A stretch of DNA of 64,000 nt. Source: a virus. A program made the position numbers and the translations under genes. Shown piece by piece: positions 6,559 to 49,894 of the stretch (the first letter of the stretch is position 1; each line of letters opens with the position of its first letter). The notes under the pieces are model-generated. The model did no database searches, was not told the DNA's origin, and worked only from the letters and a program-made list of their open reading frames with translations. Where the stretch lies: positions 1 to 64,000 of the IMG/VR virus record IMGVR_UViG_3300032298_000424; one strand, given 5' to 3'.

Positions 6559-6997
6559 TCAGTAATTTGATGCCCATAGCTTTAATCGTATCTTCTGTCC
6601 AAATAACAAACTGCCAACTCCTATCTTTTGCATAGTTATCAGCAGCTTTCCATTTACATTGGTTTTTGACGAAAGTGCGTGCCTCTTCCAAGTATTTTTT
6701 AGTCTGTCTACTTGGTTTTTTGGGAGGCACAGTTTGTGATTTTGGTTTAATCTCTACTAAAAACGTTCCTTGAGCAGTAGTATATTTTACGTCTATAAAA
6801 TAACGATGCCATTTTTTATCTAATGGATAAAAATATTGTACAACTGTCTCCTCTGAAGACCATTTTAGTACTTGTGAATTTTCATCACACCATCTAAATA
6901 CTTGTCTTTCCCAAAGAGACCTATAAACTATGTTTTTGAAGTCGCCTTCATATTTTGCTGGATTCTTACATCTGTAAAAACCTTTGTATGTAGCCAT
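6554..6997 (-). CDS. 4: Head completion protein gp4-like
   Basis: A 147-aa protein from ATG 6997 (an upstream in-frame ATG at 7048 would add 17 poorly conserved, hydrophobic residues). It shows the gp4/gp50 head-completion signature YRSLWERQVFRWCDEN, VLKWSSEETVVQYFYP, HRYFIDVKY, FLVEIKPKSQ, then a Lys-rich region and CKWKAADNYAKDRSWQFVIWTE. The D...EIKPK arrangement resembles TnsA-like or other restriction-fold nucleases, as noted for this family. It acts late in head maturation so heads can join tails. Its start lies at the left edge of a + strand late promoter (6997-7004) and the next gene is divergent. Confidence 0.85.
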   Translation of the reverse strand: MATYKGFYRCKNPAKYEGDFKNIVYRSLWERQVFRWCDENSQVLKWSSEETVVQYFYPLDKKWHRYFIDVKYTTAQGTFLVEIKPKSQTVPPKKPSRQTKKYLEEARTFVKNQCKWKAADNYAKDRSWQFVIWTEDTIKAMGIKLLT

Positions 6998-7004
6998 ATA
7001 AATA
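6997..7004 (+). promoter_or_regulatory. T4-like late promoter TATAAATA
   Basis: A perfect TATAAATA, 37 nt before the start of the gp48/54-like gene. A start about 6 nt downstream of the element leaves a leader of about 30 nt. It heads the long + strand baseplate operon. Confidence 0.8.
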
Positions 7005-7041
7005 AGAGTGTCCGTATGTAAAAGAATCATAAAGGTACAAC

Positions 7042-7944
7042 ATGCCAATCGACAATATACCCGCTGCGTTTGATAATGTTCAAGAGTTCGTTAAGAACAC
7101 TTTAGCATCCTTAAACTTTTTAAACCCGTTCGGGGCAAATGCTCCTCAGTTACGTTATCCCAAGGGGGATGTACAAAAACATCAGAACGTTATAAAGTTC
7201 GAGGCCATTGCACGTGTCAAGAAAAGTAGCGTATTAGATTTTAAAGTAGCTAAGTTTGCTGAGAGTGCACTCGGTTCAGTAACTTTATATATGCCTTCAG
7301 GAATAAGCGTTGCAGATACATTGAGTTATGATAATGCAGATACTGGTTTAGGCGGTGAGATAATGAAAGCCGGTGGTTCTGCAGCATCTCCTGGTGAATT
7401 CATCGATACATTAAAAGATCAATCTAAAGGCGTAGCTCAAACTGCTGTAGCAGCTGGTACTGCAAAAGTGGCACAAAGCAAAGGTTTGGTTGGTGGTGCA
7501 GCGACTCAAGGTATAATCAATAGAGGTGAAGTTGTAAATCCTCACACACAGATGTTATTTAAATCTCCTTCGCTTCGTCAATTTCAATTTCAGTTTAAGA
7601 TGTTTCCAAAAACTAAAGCTGAAGCTCAAGAAATAATTAAGATAGTTCAATTCTTCCGCGTAGCTGCATATCCAGCTCTTGGAAACGGTAGTGGAACTGA
7701 TTCAATTAACATGTCTACATTTAAATTTCCAGATGTATTCAAAGTTACGTTCTTAACTGGAAGTAAACAAAATAAAAATATTATTAGGATGATGGATTCT
7801 TATTTAACGTCAGTGACTGTTAACTATAATCCAACTAGTCCAACTTTCTTCGAAGATGGTATGCCATCTGAAATAGATTTGTCTTTGACTTTCCAAGAAA
7901 GCAAAGCACTCAACAGAGACCTCATCCTTTCAGGAGGTTACTAA
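7042..7944 (+). CDS. Baseplate tail tube cap (gp48/gp54-like)
   Basis: A 300-aa protein with the C-terminal pattern typical of tube caps and initiators: SLRQFQFQFKMFPKTKAEAQEII, IVQFFRVAAYP, FKFPDVFKVTFLTG, MMDSYLTSVTVNYNPTSPTFFEDG and PSEIDLSLTFQES, ending ILSGGY. An Ala/Gly-rich insertion lies at about 105-160. In T4, gp48 (364 aa) and gp54 (320 aa) complete the baseplate and initiate the tube; which of the two this represents is not clear. First gene after the late promoter; 1-nt spacing to the gp53-like gene. Confidence 0.8.
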   Translation: MPIDNIPAAFDNVQEFVKNTLASLNFLNPFGANAPQLRYPKGDVQKHQNVIKFEAIARVKKSSVLDFKVAKFAESALGSVTLYMPSGISVADTLSYDNADTGLGGEIMKAGGSAASPGEFIDTLKDQSKGVAQTAVAAGTAKVAQSKGLVGGAATQGIINRGEVVNPHTQMLFKSPSLRQFQFQFKMFPKTKAEAQEIIKIVQFFRVAAYPALGNGSGTDSINMSTFKFPDVFKVTFLTGSKQNKNIIRMMDSYLTSVTVNYNPTSPTFFEDGMPSEIDLSLTFQESKALNRDLILSGGY

Positions 7945-7945
7945 T

Positions 7946-8674
7946 ATGTCATATTTCTTCCAAGGTTTTCCAACAATGCAATATGATGTATTTGCAAATG
8001 GAAGACCCGTTGAAACCACAGATTTATTTAGATCCGTTAGACTTAAAAACAATTTACGTGATGATATAATGCTTTATGAAGCATATCATATTAATGATGG
8101 AGAAAGACCAGATCATGTATCATTAAAGTTATATGGTACTACTGATTATTATTGGACTTTTTTCATGATTAACACAGATTTAGTAAATTCATATGCTGAT
8201 TGGCCATGTTCTACTACTGAAATGGAAAATAAGATTAAAATTAAATATCAAGGTAATGTATTGTTGACTGACGAAGATATCTCTACTAAGTTTGTTCGTG
8301 GAGAAACATTACGAGGATCTATCTCTCTAGCGACTGCTAGTATCATACAAAAAGATACAGATAAGGGTGTGATTCGCTTATCAACGACTGATCAAGTTGG
8401 CACCTTCGTAGATGGAGAACTTGTAAGAGGTTTAACGTCAAACGATCAGATAATTATCAATAGTCAAAGGCCATACACTGTTGCTGCAAATCACTTTGAA
8501 GATTCACAAAGAAATTGGGTAAGAAAGGATTATCCTGGAGCAGTGCCTATGCCAAATGACGAACATGAAAGAGAATGGAATGAATATAAGACAGACATTC
8601 GAGTTATCAGACCTGAATACATTACTCAAGTAGTAGACGAATTTTATAAAATAATTAATCCAGACTCACAATAA
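7946..8674 (+). CDS. 53: Baseplate wedge protein gp53
   Basis: A 242-aa product with the gp53 signature: N-terminal SYFFQGFPTMQYDVF, TDLFRSVRLKNN, LYEAYHINDGERPDHVSLKLYGTTDYYWTFFMIN, and SYADWPCSTTEMENKIKIKY. T4 gp53 is 196 aa; the extra length is a C-terminal beta-rich extension (about 110-242). gp53 clamps neighbouring wedges around the hub. Its stop overlaps the next start (TAATG). Confidence 0.85.
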   Translation: MSYFFQGFPTMQYDVFANGRPVETTDLFRSVRLKNNLRDDIMLYEAYHINDGERPDHVSLKLYGTTDYYWTFFMINTDLVNSYADWPCSTTEMENKIKIKYQGNVLLTDEDISTKFVRGETLRGSISLATASIIQKDTDKGVIRLSTTDQVGTFVDGELVRGLTSNDQIIINSQRPYTVAANHFEDSQRNWVRKDYPGAVPMPNDEHEREWNEYKTDIRVIRPEYITQVVDEFYKIINPDSQ

Positions 8675-25326: not shown

Positions 25327-25754
25327 TGCATGAAGAAGTATTCTTTCAATTTGTAAAAAATCACGATAACTTATCACACTTAAGTTATACTGAAAATAGA
25401 CGCGAAGGTCAACAGATCATCGGTTTAAAGGTTGCTGGTATTCCAGGCGAAGATGATGATATTTTTGTTCCATACGTTGCTGAATTATTAAAAGAAGAAG
25501 ATACTACTATCATCGATCCAAACTATGATGCTGTTTATGAAAGCTTTACAGGTATCGATCATAACTTAGATTCAGTAGAATATATCAAAACCTTGGTAGA
25601 ATCTATGACAACACGTGAAGAGATATCTGTATTTTGTGTTAACAATATAGTTAAAAAATTAATCGACTGTAATATTGATGCAAGTAAAGTTTATGTAAGA
25701 GTTAAACCCCACTGGCCAACCGACTGGTGTGATCAGGTAATCGAGGTTCAATAA
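25326..25754 (+). CDS. Hypothetical protein, 142 aa (fibre-associated?)
   Basis: I take the ATG at 25326, which overlaps the upstream stop; a GTG at 25311 would add five residues. The product is acidic (repeated DD and EE), probably globular, with a C-terminal VRVKPHWPTDWCDQVIEV. It has no signal or membrane segment. It lies between a fibre gene and a putative HxH virion protein and is coupled to both by overlaps, suggesting a fibre chaperone or accessory structural role. Not recognised. Confidence 0.55.
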   Translation: MHEEVFFQFVKNHDNLSHLSYTENRREGQQIIGLKVAGIPGEDDDIFVPYVAELLKEEDTTIIDPNYDAVYESFTGIDHNLDSVEYIKTLVESMTTREEISVFCVNNIVKKLIDCNIDASKVYVRVKPHWPTDWCDQVIEVQ

Positions 25755-26140
25755 TGGCAACCACAGAACGCAATCCTAAAGCAAATATATTTCCAGATAA
25801 TAGTCCTATAACTACATTAAGAAATAATATTGTAGCTGGAAACAACATTACTGCTAGCGATATCAATTCTTTGACTAACTTAATAATGGCCTGGAAGGGT
25901 CATTATCACACGTATGATGATGCATGGCAATTAGCTACTTATGGTAACAACGGTGATCGTGGCAATTACTATGAAGATAAAAACACTGGGCCTGCCGTTC
26001 GCACAATTACTGAAGTTTTTGTTCCCCCTGCACAAGTCTCATCAGGTACTGATATATATGCAACTCACCACAATGAAATGAGATTTTTTATCTCTCTCGT
26101 TGGAAATCATGTCCATAGAATTGATGACCGCACTAGTTAA
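25754..26140 (+). CDS. HxH-repeat putative virion protein, 128 aa
   Basis: A 128-aa product with two versions of the same motif: ITASDINSLTNLIMAWKGHYHTYDD (about 36-60, key residues A38, N42, L44, H54, H56, D59) and IYATHHNEMRFFISLVGNHVHRIDD near the C-terminus. Each ends in H-x-H-xx-[YI]-D-D. A similar motif recurs in the 68-aa peptide at 28335. HxH pairs bind metal in T4 fibre tips, so a metal-stabilised tip protein is plausible. Its TAA shares bases with the stop of the convergent aminotransferase. Confidence 0.6.
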   Translation: MATTERNPKANIFPDNSPITTLRNNIVAGNNITASDINSLTNLIMAWKGHYHTYDDAWQLATYGNNGDRGNYYEDKNTGPAVRTITEVFVPPAQVSSGTDIYATHHNEMRFFISLVGNHVHRIDDRTS

Positions 26141-27363
26141 CGTAGTAAACTTTTATCTTCTACGATTAGACTTACTTTCTCTTTTAGTTCATTAAAATAT
26201 TTTTCCCCAGCATTTAGAGGTATCAAGCCTCTAGCAATAGCATCATACTTAAATGTTGTCAGTTGAAGATCATGTTTAAGAGCAACTGATGCAAACCTAA
26301 CGCCTACATCTCGGCGCCATTTCCTAGATTTCATATCAAAAGCAAAGAAGTTACCAACTTGTCTAGTTGAGGTTATATCGTGCTCACTAATAAGCCAATC
26401 TAAAAATTCTTCAACTAAGCGTTGATTATCATAGTCGTTTTCTTCATATAGGTTTAATGCTTCATTAGCAGCAGCAAGTCCAATCACCGATCCGCTATTA
26501 GTCCATCCATGTACTATCCATTCGTTTTCTAATTGATTCCAAATTTGATTATGAATCGCAACAGCAGATAACGGTACATATCCAGCAGTAATACTCTTAG
26601 ATAGTATTATAAATGTTGGTTCTATTGGTAATGCATAGTAATGAAATGGTGAACCAGTCTTAAAAAATCCGGATGCAGATTCGTCTAATATTAGGTGAAT
26701 ATCGTTAGCTACACAAAAATAGTTTAATTCATCCCAGAATTGATATGAACATTGCAATACACCAGACAAATAAGTGAAAGGTTCTATAACAATAGAACTA
26801 ATCTTGTCTACATCCAATTTTGCCAATTCGTTTAATGTTGCTTGCCCATCGTTTCCAAATGGTGATAATAATTTGATATTCTCTGGCCAATCGGGTAGGT
26901 GTTGTCCTAATCCACCCAAATCACTAATAGCTCCTGTTAACCATGTAGATCCATGGTAAGATCCTTTGAATGTGATGATCTTCGTCCTATTGCTTTTTTG
27001 TTTTAGACGAGTCATATAAGACAATCTTAAAGCAGACTCTACAGCATCGGAGCCAGAACTACCAAAGAAAAATTTCTGATGGTGTGAAAAATAAGCCGCT
27101 AATCTTTTTGAGTATGTTACACCAATCTCAGCTAACATACTATTATTATGTCTACTGAACGGTAAAGTTTGGGAGGCATTATAAATAGCATTGGATATTG
27201 AATGTTGAGAGTAACCCAGGTTGCAGTTAATATTGCCGCACTGGGCATCTAGGATCCGCTGACCAGACTTTGCAATCAGGTGAAAGCCGTCAGCGGAACT
27301 GATGATCAATGGTTCTAAGTCCGAGTGATTGGTGTAAGGAAGAACATAGTTATAATTAAACAT
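26137..27363 (-). CDS. Class-III PLP-dependent aminotransferase
   Basis: A 408-aa protein (ATG 27363; an upstream in-frame start would invade the divergent gene). Motifs of fold-type I class-III aminotransferases and glutamate-1-semialdehyde mutases: GSSGSDAVESALRL (about 101-114, phosphate loop), FKGSYHGST, DESASGFFKTG (Asp near 227 contacts PLP), and SKSITAGYVPLSAV (Lys near 256, Schiff base). It is the only - strand gene inside the right + region. It ends in a 3-bp stop overlap with the HxH gene and starts 9 bp from a divergent gene. Substrate unknown; an amino-sugar or peptide-linked amine is possible given nearby modification enzymes. Confidence 0.85.
   Translation of the reverse strand: MFNYNYVLPYTNHSDLEPLIISSADGFHLIAKSGQRILDAQCGNINCNLGYSQHSISNAIYNASQTLPFSRHNNSMLAEIGVTYSKRLAAYFSHHQKFFFGSSGSDAVESALRLSYMTRLKQKSNRTKIITFKGSYHGSTWLTGAISDLGGLGQHLPDWPENIKLLSPFGNDGQATLNELAKLDVDKISSIVIEPFTYLSGVLQCSYQFWDELNYFCVANDIHLILDESASGFFKTGSPFHYYALPIEPTFIILSKSITAGYVPLSAVAIHNQIWNQLENEWIVHGWTNSGSVIGLAAANEALNLYEENDYDNQRLVEEFLDWLISEHDITSTRQVGNFFAFDMKSRKWRRDVGVRFASVALKHDLQLTTFKYDAIARGLIPLNAGEKYFNELKEKVSLIVEDKSLLR
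27180..27187 (+). promoter_or_regulatory. TATAAATA late promoter motif antisense inside the aminotransferase gene
   Basis: A perfect TATAAATA on the + strand, within the - strand aminotransferase coding sequence, about 190 bp before the + gene at 27373. It could start late transcription of the radical-SAM operon with a long leader antisense to the aminotransferase 5' end. A TATAAT at 27351-27356 with TTGGTG at 27329 is an alternative closer promoter. Confidence 0.45.
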
Positions 27364-27372
27364 GAGGATATA

Positions 27373-28332
27373 ATGAAACCTATAGTATTTTTTCAATGCG
27401 GTGAAACTCAAAGTACACCATGGCTAGATGCTATCCAAACTTGGAATTCAGATTCAGATATAAAAGGATTTTGGATAAATCCAAAGCATCCGCAATCATA
27501 TCTATATCACTTTGAAAAGAAAGAAAACAAGATAGTTTTCAATAAAAATGTTGGTTATGTAGAAGGATCTGATTTTGTAATTACTAAACAATTCGTGCAA
27601 CCTGGCATGGATATGAATCGATCAGTAACAAAGGGTATCAATATAGATTTTATCATTGAATGGTTAAATGCCAACGATGGTAAAGCTTTAGGATTCGGAA
27701 CATTTTTAAGTAGCGGATCACATGTCGATATTATCCAAAACAGTGTATACTATACTAGAGATCCTTGGATGGGTGGTCATATATTAGATATTGAAAAAAA
27801 TGAATTCATATCTAGCGATGATAACAATAAATTGAGCACTGTTACTTGGTTTTATGCATATAAAGTAAAAAATTTACCTATCTATCTTTTAGTATTTAAT
27901 CCGTCAACGACTACGATGGGAGATAATGTAGAATTCGAAACCGAAACTAATAGATATAGAATAATGGATCCTCACATGGGATACATGTCTACTCAATTTT
28001 TAAAACCAAAGATGAGTAAAAATGCATATCCATTAGAAGACAAATGGTATGTCGTAAAGGGTGAAGAGTTTAGTTTTGAAGTTGGTGCTTTAAGTACAAT
28101 TAAACTTGGTTTAGGAGAAATCATAGATCCAAGCTTAATTAAGGTTTTAAGTGATTTAAATTTAGAACATTTGGGTGATAATAAATATAAAGCTAGATTT
28201 AAGAATGGTCAACAGTCTGCTTATATTAGTATTAGAATGAACACAGGTAATACGATGGATTGGACATTTATCAATAGTGGCAATCGGTTAGTATATAATA
28301 TTAAGATTAGCAAACATTACGAAGAGGTTTAA
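27373..28332 (+). CDS. Unknown protein, 319 aa, first of the radical-SAM operon
   Basis: ATG 27373 is preceded by GAGGATATA. The soluble product is mixed alpha/beta and rich in aromatics (for example YYTRDPWMGGH at about 129-139, RIMDPHMGYMSTQF, EDKWYVVKGEEFSFEVG). The C-terminal 80 residues look beta-rich, ending in NIKISKHYEEV. No catalytic motif is recognised. The stop lies 2 nt before the Cys-rich peptide gene, so it is cotranscribed with it. Possible roles are a substrate-presenting partner or a fibre-associated protein. Confidence 0.6.
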   Translation: MKPIVFFQCGETQSTPWLDAIQTWNSDSDIKGFWINPKHPQSYLYHFEKKENKIVFNKNVGYVEGSDFVITKQFVQPGMDMNRSVTKGINIDFIIEWLNANDGKALGFGTFLSSGSHVDIIQNSVYYTRDPWMGGHILDIEKNEFISSDDNNKLSTVTWFYAYKVKNLPIYLLVFNPSTTTMGDNVEFETETNRYRIMDPHMGYMSTQFLKPKMSKNAYPLEDKWYVVKGEEFSFEVGALSTIKLGLGEIIDPSLIKVLSDLNLEHLGDNKYKARFKNGQQSAYISIRMNTGNTMDWTFINSGNRLVYNIKISKHYEEV

Positions 28333-28334
28333 AA

Positions 28335-28541
28335 ATGGGTATAGAAGATGTAAGCACGTTTACTACTGGATCTACTATTCCAGCAGAAAAGGCCGCAGCA
28401 GATACCGTTTCTGCTGATACATTTAGACAAATGCTGGATGTGCTAGAATCATTAGCATCTCACAGCCACATATTTTATGATGATTATAACACTGTCTGCG
28501 AATGTCAGTGTGCTTGTGCTTGTGGCCGTGGGACTGTATGA
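28335..28541 (+). CDS. 68-aa peptide with HxH domain and CxCxCxCxC tail (candidate modified peptide)
   Basis: A short protein with two parts. Residues 1-52 carry a helical HxH domain (SADTFRQMLDVLESLASHSH, then IFYDDY), similar to the 128-aa protein at 25754. The C-terminus has cysteines alternating with other residues: C-E-C-Q-C-A-C-A-C, then GRGTV. SD AGAGG precedes the ATG. Its stop overlaps the SPASM radical-SAM start by 4 nt (ATGA). The leader/core layout and coupling fit a RiPP precursor or a peptide to be cross-linked, while the HxH homology suggests a virion tip peptide; both may be true. Small size makes it easy to miss. Confidence 0.75.
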   Translation: MGIEDVSTFTTGSTIPAEKAAADTVSADTFRQMLDVLESLASHSHIFYDDYNTVCECQCACACGRGTV

Positions 28542-30259
28542 AAACTATTTGGTTAAAAACCGAAGCACAAAAACAAAGGCAGCAAGATCATAAAGCATCA
28601 GTAATAGAAACTGATGGACAGTTCCAATTCCTTAGCGAGAAAATTATCACTCCAAAGGGATTGGATAAAATTAATAAACTAATCTCAGTTGTTCCAAAGG
28701 AAAATGAGACTGTACTTAGTATAAGCAATACGAAATATCTGTTTAGTGAATTGAAGCAGATGAATCTTATATTAACTAATGCATGTAATTTGTCATGTTC
28801 TTATTGTTATGAGCAGCATAAGAAAGACTTTGGTAGATTTACCAATGAGTCTCTCTTGACTGCATATCGATTCTTAAAAGATGCAAATAATAACCAAAAG
28901 AAAGTATTTCAATTTTTTGGCGGCGAGCCTTTAATCCACAAAGATATCATCTTAGATTTCCTTCGTAAGAATAAAGAAGAATTACAAATTAACTCACGCG
29001 GTGAAACCAATACAGTTATCGGTATCGTCACTAATGGGTTATTACTGACTCAGCCTTTAGTCGATGAATATTTCTCGCACGACTTTACATATATGCTTAT
29101 CTCGCTAGATACAGATAAATCTGAGGTCGATCATAGAGAGATCGGTCAAGATAAGATAAACAAGCTCATGGATCAGATCCAAACAATCCCAGAAGAGCCA
29201 AAATTTCAAAAGCGAGTCACTGTACGTTGTACTCTTGCCAGAGAGAATGCACCTTATTTTGCAGAGTTTGTTGATAACTTATACGAGCGAGGAATTAGAC
29301 GTTTAGTAGTTCATCCGCTCATATTAGATTCTGCGAGAGGATTCATTCAATGGACTGAGCAAGAATGGAATACTTTGCATAATGACATATTAAACTCTCT
29401 AGATAAGTATGAAGACTTACAAATACATTTTAGTGAAGGTGTTGGTAAGAAAGGCGAAGAGAACTGTATGATTGGTTCTGATATGATAGCTATTGATGCC
29501 AGTGGAGATTTTTCAGGTTGTTATTTTTTCACAAATCAAAAAGGCGGTTCAACTGCCGATACTATATTAGGCAATGTTTTTAATAATACGATCTATATCG
29601 ATCGTTATAAGCACTTCCAAAAAGAATATGCTAAGATGTTTGAAGAGGAAGAACAATGTAAGACATGTGACTATAAGAATGCATGCTATCAGTGTCCAGC
29701 AGGTAACTTAGATACTGGCACACGTATGTTTAGACCAGATGATATGTGTCAAAAGATCGTTAAGCTTTATGTAGATTTGCAAGAAGATATTGCTAAGAAA
29801 CAATTTAAGATTAAGTATGATACATTAGTTCGCGCATTACATACTGAAGGATATGAACTAACATTCCTTAAAGCTATCAGCTATATGTTATTTTATTATG
29901 TTTATCAATATCATCCATCACTTGATAAAGTGCATAATGATCTCGTTAATAAATTTAAAAATCCTCAAAGGTTGTTGGGTTTTTGGTTAGAGATCATGGA
30001 AGGTAAACATAAAGAACTAGATGAAGTTAAACCAGAAGAATTCCTCGATACAATACAAGAATTGATTGGTGATAAACAAGTAAGCATCGATGACTTTTAT
30101 TATCAAATTTTGGCTAAAAGAAACATGCCAACTGGTAGAATTGTTAAAGTACAAAATCAAATGCAAGAAGTATTCTTCTTAGCATTACTCCACGTATTGA
30201 TATTGGCGTCCGATGATCGGGCTTTAGATGATGCAATCAGCTATAAACTTCTACAATAA
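28538..30259 (+). CDS. Radical SAM/SPASM peptide-modifying-type enzyme (573 aa)
   Basis: The start at 28538 overlaps the peptide stop as ATGA. The radical-SAM core has C83-x3-C87-x2-C90 (NACNLSCSYCYE) and GGEP at 128-131. A C-terminal SPASM-type cysteine set follows: ENC..., GDFSGCYFF, then CKTCDYKNACYQC and DDMC, able to hold auxiliary 4Fe-4S clusters. About 160 extra helical residues follow. SPASM enzymes typically install thioether, C-C or other modifications on peptides. The coupled Cys-rich peptide immediately upstream is the obvious candidate substrate, by inference. Confidence 0.88.
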   Translation: MKTIWLKTEAQKQRQQDHKASVIETDGQFQFLSEKIITPKGLDKINKLISVVPKENETVLSISNTKYLFSELKQMNLILTNACNLSCSYCYEQHKKDFGRFTNESLLTAYRFLKDANNNQKKVFQFFGGEPLIHKDIILDFLRKNKEELQINSRGETNTVIGIVTNGLLLTQPLVDEYFSHDFTYMLISLDTDKSEVDHREIGQDKINKLMDQIQTIPEEPKFQKRVTVRCTLARENAPYFAEFVDNLYERGIRRLVVHPLILDSARGFIQWTEQEWNTLHNDILNSLDKYEDLQIHFSEGVGKKGEENCMIGSDMIAIDASGDFSGCYFFTNQKGGSTADTILGNVFNNTIYIDRYKHFQKEYAKMFEEEEQCKTCDYKNACYQCPAGNLDTGTRMFRPDDMCQKIVKLYVDLQEDIAKKQFKIKYDTLVRALHTEGYELTFLKAISYMLFYYVYQYHPSLDKVHNDLVNKFKNPQRLLGFWLEIMEGKHKELDEVKPEEFLDTIQELIGDKQVSIDDFYYQILAKRNMPTGRIVKVQNQMQEVFFLALLHVLILASDDRALDDAISYKLLQ

Positions 30260-31346
30260 ACGAGATAAGCCTCTTAATAATGTTAAGATGCTTATCATTT
30301 ACCTTGGGAATAAGTGTAACTTTGATTGTGTATATTGTGATCGAGGTTATATTGAATCGCTTGGCGGTCAATCGTTAAACGGAAACACAACTCAAGAGTT
30401 ACAAGATTTTTTCTTGTGGGCAGAAAAACAAGAAAATAAAGTTGAATGGGTATCTTTCCATGGTGGTGAGCCATTGTTATTCGCAAAACGCATGGAACAA
30501 TGTCTTGAATGGTTGATGCCAATCGCTGAACGCAATGGTTGGAAAGTTGGAATGACCACCAATGGTTCTCTAGTAAAAGAAAATCAGCATATATTTGAGA
30601 AGTATTCTGGCAAACTTGGTGCAACTATAAGCTATGACTTCATGTTCCAAGAAGAGAATCGTGATAGATTGAATGTAGTAGAGATGGCTGAAGTATTAAA
30701 TCAGCATTGTTTTGATTGGAAGTGGCAATATGTTCTGCCTATTGAAGATAGACGTGCATTCTCATTTGAAAATGTACAATCTATAGTAGACACGTGTTAT
30801 AGCACTGGATGTAAGACTGTAAATGTCATTCCTCTAAGACATCATCGCGGAGAAGACAAATTTGATGTTATAATAGATCGAATTAATTTACCGCAATTCT
30901 TTGGTGCATTTCTCGAGTTTATCCAAATATTGTATATAAAAAAGTTAAATATTTTTATCGATGGTAATTATGATAAGATTGACAAAGCATATTTTGCAGA
31001 ACATAATAAGCTAATCTTATCTCCCGACGGATATCTGTATCCAGAATTCGATTTCTTAGAATATAAAGTTGAGAATACCCGCATAGGCAAATGGCAAGAT
31101 GGAGTAGAAGTTTGGCAACCCATCGGAGATCAAAGTAGAATACATGAATCGTGTGATTCATGCGAACAAAAAGCAAGTTGCGGTTTAAAATATCTTTATA
31201 AGTTGTTCGACAAACAACCGCAAGGAAGTTGTAAAGATTTCTATAAATTTGTTGATGTAGCTATAATGCATAATGCTGAATTGAAAAAGGAAAAAAGTTT
31301 ATTCCAGAGGATCGGTATAGATAATCAATTCAAGGTGAATAAATGA
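30228..31346 (+). CDS. Second radical SAM enzyme with short Cys-rich C-terminus (372 aa)
   Basis: CX3CX2C at about 30-37 (NKCNFDCVYCDRG) and FHGGEPLLF at about 78-86. The C-terminus has CDSCEQKASC followed by GSCKDFY, a reduced SPASM/twitch-like cluster site. ATGATG at 30228/30231 overlaps the first radical-SAM gene by 32 nt; M21 (30288) immediately before the core is a less likely start. Divergent from its neighbours in length and cluster site, so it probably catalyses a different step on the same substrate. Confidence 0.82.
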   Translation: MMQSAINFYNKRDKPLNNVKMLIIYLGNKCNFDCVYCDRGYIESLGGQSLNGNTTQELQDFFLWAEKQENKVEWVSFHGGEPLLFAKRMEQCLEWLMPIAERNGWKVGMTTNGSLVKENQHIFEKYSGKLGATISYDFMFQEENRDRLNVVEMAEVLNQHCFDWKWQYVLPIEDRRAFSFENVQSIVDTCYSTGCKTVNVIPLRHHRGEDKFDVIIDRINLPQFFGAFLEFIQILYIKKLNIFIDGNYDKIDKAYFAEHNKLILSPDGYLYPEFDFLEYKVENTRIGKWQDGVEVWQPIGDQSRIHESCDSCEQKASCGLKYLYKLFDKQPQGSCKDFYKFVDVAIMHNAELKKEKSLFQRIGIDNQFKVNK

Positions 31347-32401
31347 ATAGAGACGATTTCGACAATTATCCAGATCTAGCACAATATTGGTTAAGGGAAG
31401 ATGCACTACGTTCATTAGACTATGATGTATATTTTAGTGTTGGTACAAGATACTATTGTGATGCTGGTTGCAAAGTATGTTATATTAAAGATCACTTAAA
31501 AGAAACGAAAGATTTATCTAATTTTGGAAATGATTTAGATAAACACCAAGAAGAATGGTTTAAGTTTTTTAAATATTTCGGTGTAATTAGAACTAATGAC
31601 GATCTATACTATCTAAAGCATAATCATCAAAAAGAGTATGAGTGGTATCAAAAATATGGTCATATGTTTGAATTATGTATTACTGATAATGCTATATTTA
31701 GGACACTAGAATTAGATGACATTAATTTAGCCAGTATTGCAGACATCTCAATAAGTACAGATTTTTTGAATCATGTTGGTGTAGAAAAAGTATTGGTTGC
31801 ATGTAAACAGCTTTATGATAAATTTGGCGTTAGAAAGATAAAGTATATTGACTGCGGTCACCCAGAACTATTTAAAGATATTATAGAATGGGCTAATAAA
31901 TTAGATTTACATAATTGTGTACATCATGATTTTAGAACTAATCACAGAGATATACTACACCATGCTTGGGCAGAATACCAAAATACGTGGGTAATTAATG
32001 ATGATAAAGGTTTGATGCACATCTATAGAGAATCAGTACATCTTTACTATGATAGATTTTTCTTTTCATCAGATGATGCTACCGACTTAACGATTGAACC
32101 GTTTTATCAATTTGACAATAGTATAGACATAAAAGCTTTTATGGTTAAGATGTTACAAGGTAAACAAACCTTATATAATCTTTGGAAAAATAGACCCATT
32201 GAAAAAAGATTTAGAGATTACTATACGACAACCATGCAATATATTATCAATGAAAATTTTAATTTTATCCCTAGAATTATGATGTCTCCAAAGGCAAAGT
32301 TTTTTTACAAATTACTAGAAGAAGGATGGATCCAAACTCCATACGGTCTTCTTAAGTCATCTGAATCAGATAAGATTATACCAATTATAGGCACAAAATG
32401 A
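31343..32401 (+). CDS. Divergent radical-SAM-like protein (352 aa)
   Basis: It contains CDAGCKVCYIKDHL with C39-x3-C43-x2-C46, the spacing used to bind the radical-SAM 4Fe-4S cluster, but no clear GGEP motif and no SPASM cysteines. The remainder is an alpha/beta protein with many Tyr/His residues (LHNCVHHDFRTNHRDILHHAW near 190-210). It is joined by 4-nt overlaps at both ends to bona fide radical-SAM genes. It may be a diverged enzyme or a partner subunit. The family call rests mainly on the three cysteines and the context. Confidence 0.6.
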   Translation: MNRDDFDNYPDLAQYWLREDALRSLDYDVYFSVGTRYYCDAGCKVCYIKDHLKETKDLSNFGNDLDKHQEEWFKFFKYFGVIRTNDDLYYLKHNHQKEYEWYQKYGHMFELCITDNAIFRTLELDDINLASIADISISTDFLNHVGVEKVLVACKQLYDKFGVRKIKYIDCGHPELFKDIIEWANKLDLHNCVHHDFRTNHRDILHHAWAEYQNTWVINDDKGLMHIYRESVHLYYDRFFFSSDDATDLTIEPFYQFDNSIDIKAFMVKMLQGKQTLYNLWKNRPIEKRFRDYYTTTMQYIINENFNFIPRIMMSPKAKFFYKLLEEGWIQTPYGLLKSSESDKIIPIIGTK

Positions 32402-33729
32402 GCTTTAGTAAATTTCAAACACAATCTGGTAAAGTATTCTATTATAGAAACTTAGACAATAGTCTTCATAATGATAAGGGTGAGATTTTATCTTTACCTC
32501 CTAAAGAAGGTTATGAATTCTTTGAAAATGTACAACATAATTTTGGTGTGCAACATAAGACGAATAAACCAACTGCATTACGCATTCTTCTAGGACATGC
32601 GTGTAATTACTCATGCACATATTGCATGCAAAAAGATATTGGCAATCCTGATGAGAAACCACAAAATTTTTGGTTAGAATCATTTGTAGAATCTATTAAC
32701 AAATATCTTGACTTAGAAAACTTAGAACGCATTGAACTTTGGGGTGGAGAACCATTCCTTTATTGGAATGATATGGTTCCGATCATGAAATTACTTGATG
32801 GTCCAGGTCGACACTTCTATATCTCTACAAATGCATCACCACTAAGACAAAAGCACGTAGATTTCTTCAAGACTTTAACTGCTAGTGTCATGATGGGTAT
32901 TTCACACGATGGTCCAGGTCATGAGCGTCTTCGCGGAGAAGATATCTTTGATAAGAAGAGTGTTGTTGATGTTATCAAGCAATTTGATGATATGAGTCCT
33001 AAGGTACAATATAGTTTTAATTCTGTTGTCTCTGCTACAAACTTTGATATGTTTGAGATTAATGATTATTTTAAAGCAGTTAAAGATAAGTTGGGTTTGA
33101 AGCATGCGAGGATCAGTTACATTCCTGCACGAGTTTATGACGATACAGATTCTAAAAACTCAGCTGATCATGTTATTAAAGGTGATGATCTACCCAAGTT
33201 TAAGAAGATAGTCAATGACTATATTAAAGCTGCTATCAAGCAATTGAGAGAGGGCGGAGATCGCATATTAAACTCTAATGTTATCGATGGAGATGCTGGA
33301 GTTCTTAAGTATGCCGCTTTAACTCGACATCAAATACCTATTACGATGACGTCGAATTGTGGAGCTGATGCAGCTGACATCCTTTCTATGGATATTATGG
33401 GACAAGTTAGATTATGCCCACACACCTCTGAGAAATTTAAAGGAGGTCATATCAAAGATATTAAAAGTGTTAAGATCATACAATTAGATTTAGATAGAAA
33501 ACACGAGCATTGTTATACATGTCCAGTTAGAAGACTTTGTAAGTCTAGTTGTCCTATTAAATTTCCCGATGAAGTGTTTATGCATAATTGTAGAGTAGAA
33601 AAGATTTGGTATTCTGCTATTCAACAAAACGCATTCTCATTATTGTTTAATGAACCCATAGAATTATTAGAAACTGGATTAAATGAAATTAGACCTAAAG
33701 AAGATACAAGAGCACCGATCTCAGCTTGA
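32398..33729 (+). CDS. Radical SAM/SPASM enzyme (443 aa)
   Basis: A CX3CX2C cluster site at C69, C73 and C76 (HACNYSCTYCMQ), LWGGEPFLYW with GGEP at 116-119, and a SPASM region: SNCGADAADILSMDIMGQVR, LCPHTSEKF, then CYTCPVRRLCKSSC and HNC. This resembles peptide-maturase families (AnSME/SPASM). It overlaps the preceding gene by 4 nt and the DUF3050 gene by 47 nt. It is the second complete SPASM enzyme of the operon. Confidence 0.87.
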   Translation: MSFSKFQTQSGKVFYYRNLDNSLHNDKGEILSLPPKEGYEFFENVQHNFGVQHKTNKPTALRILLGHACNYSCTYCMQKDIGNPDEKPQNFWLESFVESINKYLDLENLERIELWGGEPFLYWNDMVPIMKLLDGPGRHFYISTNASPLRQKHVDFFKTLTASVMMGISHDGPGHERLRGEDIFDKKSVVDVIKQFDDMSPKVQYSFNSVVSATNFDMFEINDYFKAVKDKLGLKHARISYIPARVYDDTDSKNSADHVIKGDDLPKFKKIVNDYIKAAIKQLREGGDRILNSNVIDGDAGVLKYAALTRHQIPITMTSNCGADAADILSMDIMGQVRLCPHTSEKFKGGHIKDIKSVKIIQLDLDRKHEHCYTCPVRRLCKSSCPIKFPDEVFMHNCRVEKIWYSAIQQNAFSLLFNEPIELLETGLNEIRPKEDTRAPISA

Positions 33730-34438
33730 GAATCATTCTCTTCTTGTAACTAATACTATACAATCTATTGAAGATCTTAGAATCTTCATGAAATATCATG
33801 TCTTTGCGGTATGGGATTTCATGAGTCTATTAAAGACTATACAGCACAATGTGGTGCCAACTAGTAACATATGGTTACCAACTCCTGGCACAAGGTCTGA
33901 TATAGCTAGGATGATTAATGAGATAGTCCTCTGTGAGGAATCTGATATATCTCCCGATGGTAAATCATCTATAAGTCATTTCGACCTATACTTACAGTCA
34001 ATGATGGAAGTAGGTGCTGATACAATGCCTGTTAGAAATTACCTGGATGCGGTTAGCAAGTTTAATTCACACATAGACTGTGAGTATGTTCCAAAGGCTT
34101 CTATGGATTTCGTAAAAACCACATTTGATGCTATAAAAATGGGTCCTCATTGTGCTGCAGCTTCATTTTGTTACGGTAGAGAATCAGTAATCCCTGCAAT
34201 GTTTAAAAGATTACTTAAACAGATTGATATATCAGAAACTGATGCTCCTAAGTTTCACTATTACTTAGAAAGACACATCCAGGTTGATGGAGAAAGTCAT
34301 GGACCAATGTCAGAACATTTGGTTAATTATTTTTGTAAGGATGATCCATTCCTTATTCATGAGGCCGAACAAGCGGCGATTACAGCTATCAAAGCTAGAA
34401 TTAAACTATTTGATGACATAGAATCGCAACTCATATAA
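33683..34438 (+). CDS. DUF3050 (heme-oxygenase-like diiron oxidase family) protein
   Basis: A 251-aa protein with the DUF3050 pattern: YHVFAVWDFMSLLKTIQ (about 38-54), RMINEIVLCEESD (about 76-88), SHFDLYLQSM, GPHCAAASFCYGRESVIPAM, and HYYLERHIQVDGESHGPM. The conserved E, H and D residues (H39, E84/E85, H99 and the HIQVDGESHG block) are suitable metal ligands of the heme-oxygenase-like fold that includes diiron oxidases. It ends the radical-SAM operon. Its start overlaps the upstream gene by 47 nt. A terminal oxidation step in a modification pathway is inferred from position. Confidence 0.8.
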   Translation: MKLDLKKIQEHRSQLENHSLLVTNTIQSIEDLRIFMKYHVFAVWDFMSLLKTIQHNVVPTSNIWLPTPGTRSDIARMINEIVLCEESDISPDGKSSISHFDLYLQSMMEVGADTMPVRNYLDAVSKFNSHIDCEYVPKASMDFVKTTFDAIKMGPHCAAASFCYGRESVIPAMFKRLLKQIDISETDAPKFHYYLERHIQVDGESHGPMSEHLVNYFCKDDPFLIHEAEQAAITAIKARIKLFDDIESQLI

Positions 34439-46685: not shown

Positions 46686-48368
46686 ATGAATAAGGTGACT
46701 CCGAAAAAAATATTTAGTATTCCAATCAATCCTAAACTTTCACAAGAAGAGTTTACGGCATTTTATCATTGGCTTTCAGAATACAAAGACTGGATTGCTG
46801 ATGTGTACTTTACATCTAGAATAAACCCGTTCAATCAAGATGCAATGGGCGACGTCATCATGTTTAATCAAGATAAGGTTAACCTTATCGAGACAGCATT
46901 AAACATTCAAAAATATCTTGGAATTAAAGCATCTGCAACCTTTAATAATATCCAAGTAGCTCCAACGCAAACAAATTTAGATACTTTTATTGTCAACTTT
47001 AAACCGTTGTACGATGCAGGTATTCGTGTAGCAACTATTCCTCATACACATTGGATGGCCACTGGTCAAATTAAAGCTGCATTCCCAGAGTTATTTGTTA
47101 AAAATACCATACTAAGAAACGTAAGAAGACCTGCTGAAGTAGTAGCACTAGCCAAAGAAGGGTTTGATTATATTAACTTAGATCGTGATCTAATGCGCGA
47201 TAGAGATGCTTTAGTTAGACTACAAGAAGCTAAGAAGTGGATTAAAGTAAACTTAGGTAAAGACATTCAATATAGTCTATTGGCTAATGAAGGTTGCTTA
47301 GGTGAGTGCCATATGATGGATGAACACTTTGAATATAATAATACTCGTGGAGAAAAAGATCCATCTTACTTTAATTCTCCAATAAGTCGTGTAAGTTGCC
47401 CAAAATGGGACGTTGAAGATCCAGCAGTTTATTTAAAGACCGCGAACTTTGCTCCGTGGAAAGCAGATTGGGATGAATACTTAGATTTGGGTATTGATGT
47501 GTTTAAGATGCATGGAAGAGAAAGCATTGCCAGGTTGGGTGAGACCATGCGTAAAGTAGAAAGATACGTAGCAAATGAAGAAATATTAGATGATAATTTT
47601 GAAGACTTTATTAATAAGGCTCAACTTACTGGTAAACCTATTAATATTTGGCGCGATAAGATTAAAAATTGCAAATTTGATTGTTGGGAATGTCAATACT
47701 GCGATAAGATTGAAGAGAAAAAAGACGAGTATGATTATACGTCTCTAACTAAACACGTCGTAGATTCTATTGCAAAGAGTGGTATTCCAAAGGTTAACAT
47801 TAATATCAGTGGCTTAACTAGTTCGCGCGTTCAAACATTATTAAATGTACTAGCTTCCAAGTGCGGTTCCTATCTAGAAGTTGGATCTTATTTGGGTGCA
47901 ACTGCGGCCGCAGTACTATATAAGAACCCCATTAAAGCATATTTTATTGATAGATGGGAACAACAAATTCAACCCGCCAATGATAACTTTCAAACTGAAG
48001 CTAATGATTACGACACCTTTCTTTTAAATATTACCCCGTATGTAGATAAATCTGATGTAAAGATCTTTAGAGAAGACATGCTGAATGTTAACTTGAATGA
48101 AATAGATTCTAAAGTTGATATGTTCATGTATGATGGTCCGCATGATGCTAAATCTACGAGTGATGCAATTAAATACTATTGGCCAGTCTTAGCTAATGAA
48201 GCTATCTTAATTTTTGATGATGCAAATTGGGAGACAGTTATTCAAGGAGTTAGAGATGGATTGAATGAAGTAGATGCTAAAGTAATCTATGAAAAGATGA
48301 TATTGAATTCTGAAGAGAATCCACGAGAATGGTGGAATGGATTATATATTTTGGTGATTAAAAAATGA
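46686..48368 (+). CDS. U32-like Fe-S domain fused to a class I methyltransferase, 560 aa
   Basis: The N-terminal half (1-345) is a TIM-barrel-like protein with the U32-family look: INPFNQDAMGDVIMF (about 46-60), ANEGCLGECHMMDEHF (C204, C208), SRVSCPKWD (C238), and NCKFDCWECQYCD (C329, C333, C336, C339). The cysteines could hold a 4Fe-4S cluster, as in UbiU/V- and RlhA-type U32 proteins. The C-terminal part (about 395-560) is a SAM methyltransferase (YLEVGSYLGATAA at about 396-408, DMFMYDGPHD, ILIFDDANWETVIQG). Fusion of these activities is unusual. It precedes the halogenase by a 4-nt overlap, so a joint pathway is likely. Confidence 0.72.
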   Translation: MNKVTPKKIFSIPINPKLSQEEFTAFYHWLSEYKDWIADVYFTSRINPFNQDAMGDVIMFNQDKVNLIETALNIQKYLGIKASATFNNIQVAPTQTNLDTFIVNFKPLYDAGIRVATIPHTHWMATGQIKAAFPELFVKNTILRNVRRPAEVVALAKEGFDYINLDRDLMRDRDALVRLQEAKKWIKVNLGKDIQYSLLANEGCLGECHMMDEHFEYNNTRGEKDPSYFNSPISRVSCPKWDVEDPAVYLKTANFAPWKADWDEYLDLGIDVFKMHGRESIARLGETMRKVERYVANEEILDDNFEDFINKAQLTGKPINIWRDKIKNCKFDCWECQYCDKIEEKKDEYDYTSLTKHVVDSIAKSGIPKVNINISGLTSSRVQTLLNVLASKCGSYLEVGSYLGATAAAVLYKNPIKAYFIDRWEQQIQPANDNFQTEANDYDTFLLNITPYVDKSDVKIFREDMLNVNLNEIDSKVDMFMYDGPHDAKSTSDAIKYYWPVLANEAILIFDDANWETVIQGVRDGLNEVDAKVIYEKMILNSEENPREWWNGLYILVIKK

Positions 48369-49894
48369 TTAAGAAGATAAAAAATATTGTTATATTTGGT
48401 GGAGGAACAAGCGGTTGGTTAACAGCAGCTTATATGACAAACCGTTTAAACTTTCCATGTAATATCACATTGATAGAAAGTAAATCACTTGGACCTATTG
48501 GAGTTGGTGAAGGTACACAACCATTTACTTCTAGATTTTTACATGATGCGGGTTTAGAACCAAAGCAGTGGATGAAACCAGCGCAAGCTGCATTTAAATA
48601 CGGCGTATTATTATCTGGTTGGAATAAAGAACCATACTTTGTAGATAATGATTTCGTTGAAAACCATATCATGGGTCCAAACTTATATGCACACGACTAT
48701 TTTATTCATAAAACAAATGAAGAGTGGGTAAAATGGCAACCGGCTTATAGATTAGCTATGGCAAATAAAAGCCCTAAGCTTGGTGGTTATGATCATTCCA
48801 TGTCTCTTCGAGACTTTAAAGACTGGGGTGCGGTGCACTTTTCAGCATTTGATATATTAGATACTATCCACGATTTAATTAAAGATCGAATTACATATTT
48901 CGACACTAAGATTACAGAGATAAAATCTAATGATGAAGGTATCGAATACTTATTAGATGAACAAGGTAGAAAACATACAGCCGATCTTTTTATTGACTGC
49001 ACGGGCTTTGAAGCCAAGTTAATCAATAAAGAATTAAAAGTGCCTTTTATTGATATCTCTAGTATTCTTCCATGCGATAGTGCAGTTGCTATGCCTACAC
49101 AATTTAAAAATCCGCAAGAAGAATGCCATCCATATACTAAAGCAACCACTATGACGGCTGGTTGGAGATGGACAATCCCAACATTCAAACAGATTGGCAA
49201 TGGTTATGTGTATTCATCTAAACATATTTCAGCTGAAGATGCTGAAAAAGAACTAAGAGATTCTATCGGCGAATATGATGCTAAAGCTCGTCATTTAAAA
49301 ATGAGATGCGGAGCTTCTGAGAAGGTAGCACATAAGAATGTTATTGCAGTTGGATTATCTGCTGGGTTTGTAGAGCCTTTAGAAGCAACTGGTATTACAT
49401 TCACTACTAAGATCGTTGAAGCATTAACAAACGGATTAAATCATCATAGCGGTATTTGGAATGATAACTTAATGAATGCTTTTAATGCAGCATATATTAA
49501 TATGGTAGTTGAAATCATTGCGTTTGTTTGGGCTCACTATCATTATAGTGACAGAGATGATACTCCTTTCTGGCAAGAAATCAGAAACCAAAAAATAGAA
49601 GATGCGCCGCAGTATATCCAAGAAATGTTTAGTCACTTCTATCCTACACTACATCGTAGATTTTATATAGACGATAAGACCTCTGGTTTCCATAGTGGTC
49701 ATTGGTTTAGTATGTTACATGCCAATAGAGTGTATGATAACATTGAAAAACCTAAACTATCAGAAGAAGAGATGAAGTATGCTGAATACTATATTAAGTC
49801 AAAAACTGATGAGATAGATAATGCTATAGAATATTTCCCAAATCATTATGAATTTTTGAAGGATTGGTATGAGAGAACCAGTAACGCTATTTAG
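48365..49894 (+). CDS. Flavin-dependent (tryptophan-type) halogenase
   Basis: A 509-aa protein with the FAD-binding GGGTSG (12-17), the halogenase signature WRWTIP (about 265-270), the catalytic lysine in QAAFKYG (K78, the PrnA K79 equivalent), and an Glu in GFVEPLEATGI (E337, the PrnA E346 equivalent). All residues expected of an active flavin-dependent halogenase are present. A viral homologue, VirX1 of cyanophage Syn10, has been shown to halogenate (iodinate) small aromatics. It is followed by two oxygenase-like genes in one operon. Confidence 0.9.
   Translation: MIKKIKNIVIFGGGTSGWLTAAYMTNRLNFPCNITLIESKSLGPIGVGEGTQPFTSRFLHDAGLEPKQWMKPAQAAFKYGVLLSGWNKEPYFVDNDFVENHIMGPNLYAHDYFIHKTNEEWVKWQPAYRLAMANKSPKLGGYDHSMSLRDFKDWGAVHFSAFDILDTIHDLIKDRITYFDTKITEIKSNDEGIEYLLDEQGRKHTADLFIDCTGFEAKLINKELKVPFIDISSILPCDSAVAMPTQFKNPQEECHPYTKATTMTAGWRWTIPTFKQIGNGYVYSSKHISAEDAEKELRDSIGEYDAKARHLKMRCGASEKVAHKNVIAVGLSAGFVEPLEATGITFTTKIVEALTNGLNHHSGIWNDNLMNAFNAAYINMVVEIIAFVWAHYHYSDRDDTPFWQEIRNQKIEDAPQYIQEMFSHFYPTLHRRFYIDDKTSGFHSGHWFSMLHANRVYDNIEKPKLSEEEMKYAEYYIKSKTDEIDNAIEYFPNHYEFLKDWYERTSNAI

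What the first reader, a model, noticed from the sequence alone, without database searches (positions are those of the whole stretch)
28335..34438. Phage-encoded peptide-modification operon: Cys-alternating peptide plus four radical-SAM-type proteins and a DUF3050 oxidase-like protein
Seen: a 68-aa gene ending in C-E-C-Q-C-A-C-A-C-GRGTV, joined by a 4-nt overlap to a SPASM radical-SAM gene, then three further genes with CX3CX2C sites (two with GGEP, one also with a full SPASM set), then a DUF3050 gene, all overlapping. Known: SPASM radical-SAM enzymes coupled to small Cys-rich genes are the hallmark of RiPP/sactipeptide-type loci. Inference: this phage modifies, probably cross-links, a small peptide. 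Four radical-SAM-type proteins in a row inside a T4-like tail region is an arrangement I do not know to be described.
Basis: partly seen in the sequence, partly recalled or inferred. Interest (0 to 1): 0.93.

Follow-up and report, generated by a model that had tools for sequence, protein, structure and literature searches.

The report
Phage tail-protein cysteine-tail modification cassette
A phage carries, inside its tail-fibre genes, a tiny tail-type protein ending in alternating cysteines plus a cassette of radical-SAM enzymes that very probably modify that end chemically, and an unbiased search shows that the same pairing of cysteine-tailed tail proteins with such an enzyme recurs across many otherwise unrelated phages.

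Summary
In detail: a 68-aa gene ending CECQCACACGRGTV overlaps (ATGA) a SPASM radical-SAM gene, followed by three more CX3CX2C proteins and a DUF3050 gene. The third enzyme (31343-32401) is an unrecognised radical-SAM candidate: its motif is invariant in 12 homologues, but its fold match is weak. The cassette recurs in dozens of viral contigs. Peptide-seeded and enzyme-seeded searches found each other in every case that was not cut by a contig end.

The free "RiPP" reading is only partly right. The peptide is homologous to a neighbouring two-repeat HxH tail-region protein, so it is probably a virion or tail-fibre component.

The larger result: an enzyme-blind search for C-terminal C[N/D]C[N/D]C[N/D]C[N/D]C in viral contigs found tail-type proteins on several unrelated scaffolds. 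70 of 84 such loci hold a relative of these enzymes, and the other 14 hold under 2.5 kb downstream. Cultured Achromobacter phages JWF and 2-1 have the same pair. The C-terminal RG motif occurs only where enzymes 1-3 are present.

Best explanation: radical-SAM maturation (probably thioether formation) of the cysteine tails of phage tail/adhesin proteins. No account of it was found in the papers searched. The chemistry is untested.

The parts
28335..28541 (+). 68-aa substrate candidate (pep): variable N-terminus, one HxHxFxDDY repeat, (Cx)5 tail, terminal RG[T/S]x
28490..28541 (+). sequence of the conserved Cys-alternating C-terminal tail TVCECQCACACGRGTV
   Evidence: alignment of 24 relatives; family of 48 sequences
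28538..30259 (+). rS1: radical-SAM/SPASM enzyme, 573 aa, nearest named family PapB (116 bits, cut-off 340)
30228..31346 (+). rS2: radical-SAM enzyme with GGEP and a C-terminal CX2CX5CX16C cluster site
31343..32401 (+). rS3x: divergent protein with invariant CX3CX2C, probable radical-SAM enzyme, not in Pfam/NCBIfam (phrog_36229)
32398..33729 (+). rS4: radical-SAM enzyme with full SPASM cysteine set; member of the phage clade that also serves other Cys-tailed tail proteins
33683..34438 (+). DUF3050 protein, haem-oxygenase-like di-iron oxidase candidate; all proposed metal ligands kept (E86, H99, E167, H198, D202, H206); absent from many relatives
27373..28332 (+). g335: conserved companion of unknown function, mostly beta model; present in most cassettes, accessory role unknown
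25754..26140 (+). two-repeat HxH tail-region protein, homologous to the peptide body (hhalign 94%, E 1.2e-7); no Cys tail
26137..27411 (-). class-III aminotransferase, opposite strand; present only in close relatives of the window, probably not core

Best explanation
The cassette is a virion-protein maturation system. The 68-aa protein is a small tail or fibre component (one HxH repeat) whose C-terminal Cys-x-Cys tail is the substrate. rS4, the enzyme type shared by all such phages, acts on the alternating cysteines, most probably by SPASM-type radical chemistry that makes thioether links from Cys sulfur to the side chain of a neighbouring Asn/Asp/Gln/Glu/Ala. rS1, rS2 and rS3x act in addition at or near the terminal RG[T/S]x, and the di-iron DUF3050 protein may add an oxidation. 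The product would be a rigid, reduction-proof tip or joint in the tail fibre, used in adsorption. Shown by computation: gene linkage, conservation of tail and catalytic cysteines, paralogy with a tail-region protein, and the phage-wide pairing of Cys tails with this enzyme type. Inferred: that the enzymes modify the tail, the bond type, the division of labour, the role in the virion.
For: Peptide-seeded search: 40 of 40 loci carry rS1. rS1-seeded search: 24 of 24 loci carry the peptide. Tail and HxH-DDY core are the conserved parts; invariant C55, C57, C63, R65, G66. Peptide body homologous to the adjacent two-repeat protein. Cassette lies between T4-like baseplate and tail-fibre genes. Enzyme-blind DNA pattern searches: 70 of 84 loci with a terminal Cys tail hold a relative of rS1/rS2/rS4, against 9 of 149 other loci; all 14 misses hold under 2.5 kb downstream, where the enzyme lies in 63 of 65 positives. 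Eight of ten scaffold clusters have the enzyme. Cultured phages JWF and 2-1: fibre with ...NCNCDCNCNCSC / ...NCNCDCNCSC directly before a Hint domain, two genes upstream of the enzyme gene. Solo rS4-type enzymes sit beside Gly-rich adhesins carrying CGAC(AC)-GGGGGG, seen in 15 loci and in none of the rS1 loci. Terminal C-x-RG occurs only with rS1-rS3x. The rS4 types join in one phage group.
Against: No biochemistry; no mass spectrum of any member. Genomic pairing does not show that the enzymes act on the tail: the tail might bind metal and the enzymes act elsewhere. Virion location of the peptide is inferred from homology and gene position only; the neighbouring tail-region protein itself has no assigned function. 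Di-iron oxidases need oxygen while radical-SAM enzymes are oxygen-sensitive. Many contigs are related, so counts overstate independent events.
Confidence: 0.75

Rival explanations
1. A free RiPP: the phage makes a small cross-linked peptide (bacteriocin, superinfection-exclusion or signalling peptide) that is cut from its N-terminal part and released.
For: Small Cys-rich gene translationally coupled to SPASM enzymes; nearest named families of rS1 and rS4-like proteins are peptide maturases (PapB, SCIFF, nif11).
Against: No protease, transporter or RRE recognised among the cassette genes scanned; N-terminus not conserved; body homologous to a tail-region protein; the same enzyme type pairs with 100-600 aa fibre-like proteins whose Cys motif is at the very C-terminus, which cannot be free peptides.
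Confidence: 0.1
2. The Cys tails are metal- or Fe-S-binding needle tips (a cysteine analogue of the HxH iron sites known from other phage fibres), and the radical-SAM enzymes help insert or sulfurate the site rather than cross-link the chain.
For: Alternating Cys would line the inside of a trimeric fibre; the peptide has an HxH motif as well; fits all linkage data equally.
Against: No SPASM enzyme known to me acts as a metal-site inserter for such tails; the nearest families form C-S or C-C bonds (for the families; their chemistry from own knowledge).
Confidence: 0.1
3. The enzymes modify something other than the tail (host surface, nucleotide, another tail protein) and the Cys protein is only a neighbour or partner.
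For: Auxiliary modification genes are common in host-recognition islands of marine T4-like phages; earlier papers read phage radical-SAM genes as host-metabolism genes (PMC2853527) or reported them without linking them to a tail protein (PMC7029224).
Against: Enzyme-blind search recovers the pair on several unrelated scaffolds; tail ending RG tracks the extra enzymes.
Confidence: 0.05

Closest known systems
PapB / ranthipeptide and QhpD-type SPASM maturases (NF047865, TIGR03906)
   Same: Radical-SAM/SPASM enzymes acting on Cys-rich ribosomal substrates; among the best-scoring named families for rS1
   Different: rS1 scores 116 bits against a cut-off of 340; substrate has CxC repeats, not the CX3D spacing of PapA (own knowledge); substrate looks like a tail protein; three or four enzymes together
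CXXX-repeat and SCIFF peptide systems (TIGR04115, TIGR03974)
   Same: Repeated cysteines with a SPASM enzyme; closest solved structure to rS1 is 5wgg, 'radical SAM domain protein' (E 4e-20), which I take from memory to be the SCIFF maturase CteB
   Different: Scores far below cut-offs (79/350, 75/425); different repeat; bacterial peptides, not virion proteins
Phage radical-SAM genes reported before: Campylobacter phages CP220/CPt10, a T4-like TARA genome with 12 such genes, pelagimyophage host-recognition cassettes
   Same: Clusters of radical-SAM genes in phage genomes, in the last case in the host-recognition island
   Different: The passages read do not mention a cysteine-tailed tail protein or a protein-modification role
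HxH iron-binding tips of phage fibres such as T4 gp37 (own knowledge)
   Same: Alternating metal-ligand residues at the end of a fibre
   Different: Here cysteines, with dedicated radical-SAM enzymes

Membership tests
PapB-type ranthipeptide maturase (NF047865) | Score above curated cut-off (340 bits) | tested here: not met
   116.5 bits for rS1, 57 for rS2, 49 for rS4
PapB-type ranthipeptide maturase (NF047865) | Substrate with CX3D/E repeats (own knowledge of PapA) | tested here: not met
   Tail is CxCxCxCxC
Radical-SAM RiPP system in general | Small Cys-rich gene coupled to a SPASM enzyme | tested here: met
   4-nt overlap, SPASM Cys set
Radical-SAM RiPP system in general | Conserved leader or RiPP recognition element, with protease or export gene | tested here: not met
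   Variable N-terminus; no such Pfam/NCBIfam domain in the cassette genes scanned
Radical-SAM RiPP system in general | Thioether or C-C cross-link in product | not testable with these tools
   Needs mass spectrometry
Radical-SAM superfamily (rS3x) | CX3CX2C conserved, partial TIM barrel | tested here: inconclusive
   Motif invariant; alternating strands and helices with only weak fold matches, best two to MoaA
Prokaryotic viperin (NF038283 / pVip) | Score above curated cut-off (180 bits) | tested here: not met
   46-57 bits; PADLOC pVip 34-65 bits, radical-SAM core only
DUF3050 / haem-oxygenase-like di-iron oxidase | Pfam match and conserved Glu/His/Asp ligands | tested here: met
   258 bits against 22; E86, H99, E167, H198, D202, H206 conserved, matching the ligand set proposed in PMC4520260
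Daptide aminotransferase (NF041821) | Score above curated cut-off (450 bits) | tested here: not met
   146.6 bits
T4-like myophage tail | Baseplate wedge, hub and terminase families | tested here: met
   phrog_430, 219, 438, 5989

The most novel reading that the evidence does not exclude
Tailed phages across many lineages use dedicated radical-SAM enzymes to cross-link Cys-alternating ends of their tail fibres, adhesins and small tail proteins: a general, undescribed chemistry of virion proteins, with the window carrying an elaborated four-enzyme form.
Probability: 0.6. Interest if true: 0.95.

Novelty: new variant of a known kind. Interest (0 to 1): 0.9.

Why it matters
Virion proteins are not known to me to be matured by radical-SAM chemistry. 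If true, it explains a class of phage 'auxiliary' genes so far read as metabolic, adds a new covalent architecture to tail tips (relevant to adsorption and host range), and offers several new peptide-modifying enzymes with a clear, minimal substrate motif. It is directly testable in cultured phages (Achromobacter phages JWF and 2-1).

Tried and rejected
tblastn of the peptide, rS3x and DUF3050 against cultured phages: no match; rS1 gave only weak hits in unannotated gut contigs. PDB profile search with the peptide, the HxH protein and rS3x: nothing meaningful. Fold search with g335: only weak Ig-like beta matches, no assignment. Adhesin-seeded scan: no hit was confirmed by tblastn, probably because of low complexity; a DNA pattern for KRLIACGAC gave four contigs, all already known with the enzyme. 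Plasmid search with an rS4-like enzyme: none. Rejected: antiviral viperin (and cut-offs); daptide system (cut-off not met; aminotransferase only in close relatives). Literature: no paper found linking phage radical-SAM genes to a tail protein; the library lacks many subscription papers.
Full report
What is there. The window is part of a 69.2-kb IMG/VR virus record. It carries T4-like baseplate and terminase genes (phrog_430, 219, 438, 5989). The cassette lies between the large phrog_358 protein with its tail-fibre-like neighbour and the tail-fibre genes downstream. Enzymes 1, 2 and 4 are radical-SAM proteins by Pfam. Enzyme 3 is not recognised by any library except phrog_36229 (unknown function), but keeps CX3CX2C in 12 homologues and its model gives weak best matches to MoaA. 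DUF3050 keeps the di-iron ligand pattern proposed for that family (PMC4520260).

The unit is conserved. A search seeded with rS1 gave 24 loci, all with the peptide. A search seeded only with the peptide gave 40 loci, all with rS1. Gene order varies (g335 before or after the peptide, the HxH protein sometimes between rS3x and rS4, DUF3050 missing, moved or on the other strand), but peptide, rS1, rS2, rS3x and rS4 stay together unless the contig ends. The contigs that carry it reach 379 kb, and relatives lie in genome assemblies labelled Alteromonadales, Bdellovibrio and Ewingella.

What the peptide is. In 24 aligned relatives the first half is variable. The conserved parts are an HxHxFxDDY core and a tail C[EDNQ]C[QN](CxCx)C-x-RG[TS]x with three to six cysteines. 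The core is homologous to the neighbouring protein 25754-26140, which has two such repeats and no Cys tail (hhalign probability 94%, E 1.2e-7). So the peptide is best seen as a small tail-type protein with a modified end, not as a leader-core RiPP precursor.

The wider pattern. Searching with rS4 brought in contigs with rS4 as the only enzyme of the cassette. In those, the neighbour is a Gly-rich tail adhesin whose N-terminus typically reads ...LIACGAC(AC)..GGGGGGGG; it occurs in 15 loci, all solo-rS4, and in none of the rS1 loci. Nearby genes include a Gp38-type adhesin and a tail assembly chaperone. Two contigs (L174, L214) have the peptide with rS4 alone; their tails lack RG. In cultured Achromobacter phage JWF the rS4 relative gp30 lies two genes after the fibre protein gp28, which reads ...NCNCDCNCNCSC followed at once by a Hint (self-splicing type) domain, and phage 2-1 has the same arrangement.

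An enzyme-blind test. Of 84 loci with such a tail within 30 residues of an ORF end, 70 hold an rS1/rS2/rS4 relative of at least 40 bits; of the 149 other loci 9 do, and at least seven of those nine also hold such a motif in an overlapped ORF or further inside an ORF (Fisher p about 1e-34). Leaving out the window-type peptide, it is 58 of 71. All 14 tail loci without the enzyme hold less than 2.5 kb of downstream sequence, whereas the enzyme is downstream in 63 of 65 positives, at a median of 2.2 kb. The tails sit on ten scaffold clusters, eight with the enzyme; the contigs are partly related, so the p-value is not to be read literally.

Division of labour. Terminal C-x-RG was found in all genuine peptides of loci with rS1-rS3x and in none of 68 Cys-tailed ORFs of solo-rS4 loci (the 'exceptions' printed there look like spurious-frame ORFs, my judgement, and some of the 68 do too). 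This suggests that rS4 handles the CxC repeat and the other three enzymes the RG end. In a quick tree rS1 and rS2 are each one group, and the rS4 proteins of the cassette, of the adhesin loci and of the (NC)n-tail loci, JWF included, join in one group (supports 93-95, one long branch).

Mechanism. SPASM enzymes of the nearest families make thioether or C-C links in ribosomal peptides (own knowledge). Alternation of Cys with Asn, Asp, Gln, Glu or Ala fits thioether formation to neighbouring side chains. A cross-linked strand, or three in a trimeric fibre, would be a rigid tip. These steps are inference. A metal-binding tip remains possible.

What is known. Phage radical-SAM genes have been reported in Campylobacter phages (PMC2853527, read as boosting host metabolism), in a T4-like environmental genome with 12 such genes (PMC5332604) and as cassettes in the pelagimyophage host-recognition island (PMC7029224). 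I found no paper that connects them with a tail protein. The enzymes are new members, far below every curated cut-off, of the SPASM maturase kind; the substrate class and the phage-wide pairing are what is new.

Noticed in passing
L232 (Achromobacter phage JWF NC_029075, locus 6802-8253); L466 3501-4943: Tail-fibre protein whose Cys tail is followed directly by a Hint domain, so that self-cleavage would expose the tail as the C-terminus
   Followed up: partly
L177, L178, L180, L182, L187, L188, L190, L192, L193, L195, L199, L201, L206, L209, L217: Solo rS4-type enzyme beside a Gly-rich adhesin with an N-terminal Cys motif (mostly CGAC); some neighbours are a fatty-acid-desaturase-like protein (L195), a 2OG-Fe(II) oxygenase (L209) and a conserved 361-aa protein without Pfam match (L182)
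   Followed up: partly
L231 15936-16319: Huge-phage contig (543 kb) with the HTHT core followed by a long irregular Cys-rich region and several radical-SAM relatives nearby
   Followed up: no
L420 2048-2634; L355; L462: Loci with two or three different proteins ending in (NC)n tails served by one or two rS4-like enzymes
   Followed up: no
window 48365-49894: Tryptophan-halogenase-like gene (phrog_2928, 330 bits) in the same phage
   Followed up: no
window 26137-27411 (-): Class-III aminotransferase on the opposite strand beside the cassette, only in close relatives; named hits include bioA and daptide aminotransferase, all below cut-off
   Followed up: partly
L074 (Ewingella americana strain E4, 253-kb scaffold): Genome assembly of a named strain holding a divergent copy of the cassette; whether prophage or co-assembled jumbo phage was not checked
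   Followed up: no
L366, L414, L450, L391: Proteins with an internal (CD)n motif and no radical-SAM neighbour; the motif is not at the C-terminus, so they may be a different thing
   Followed up: no
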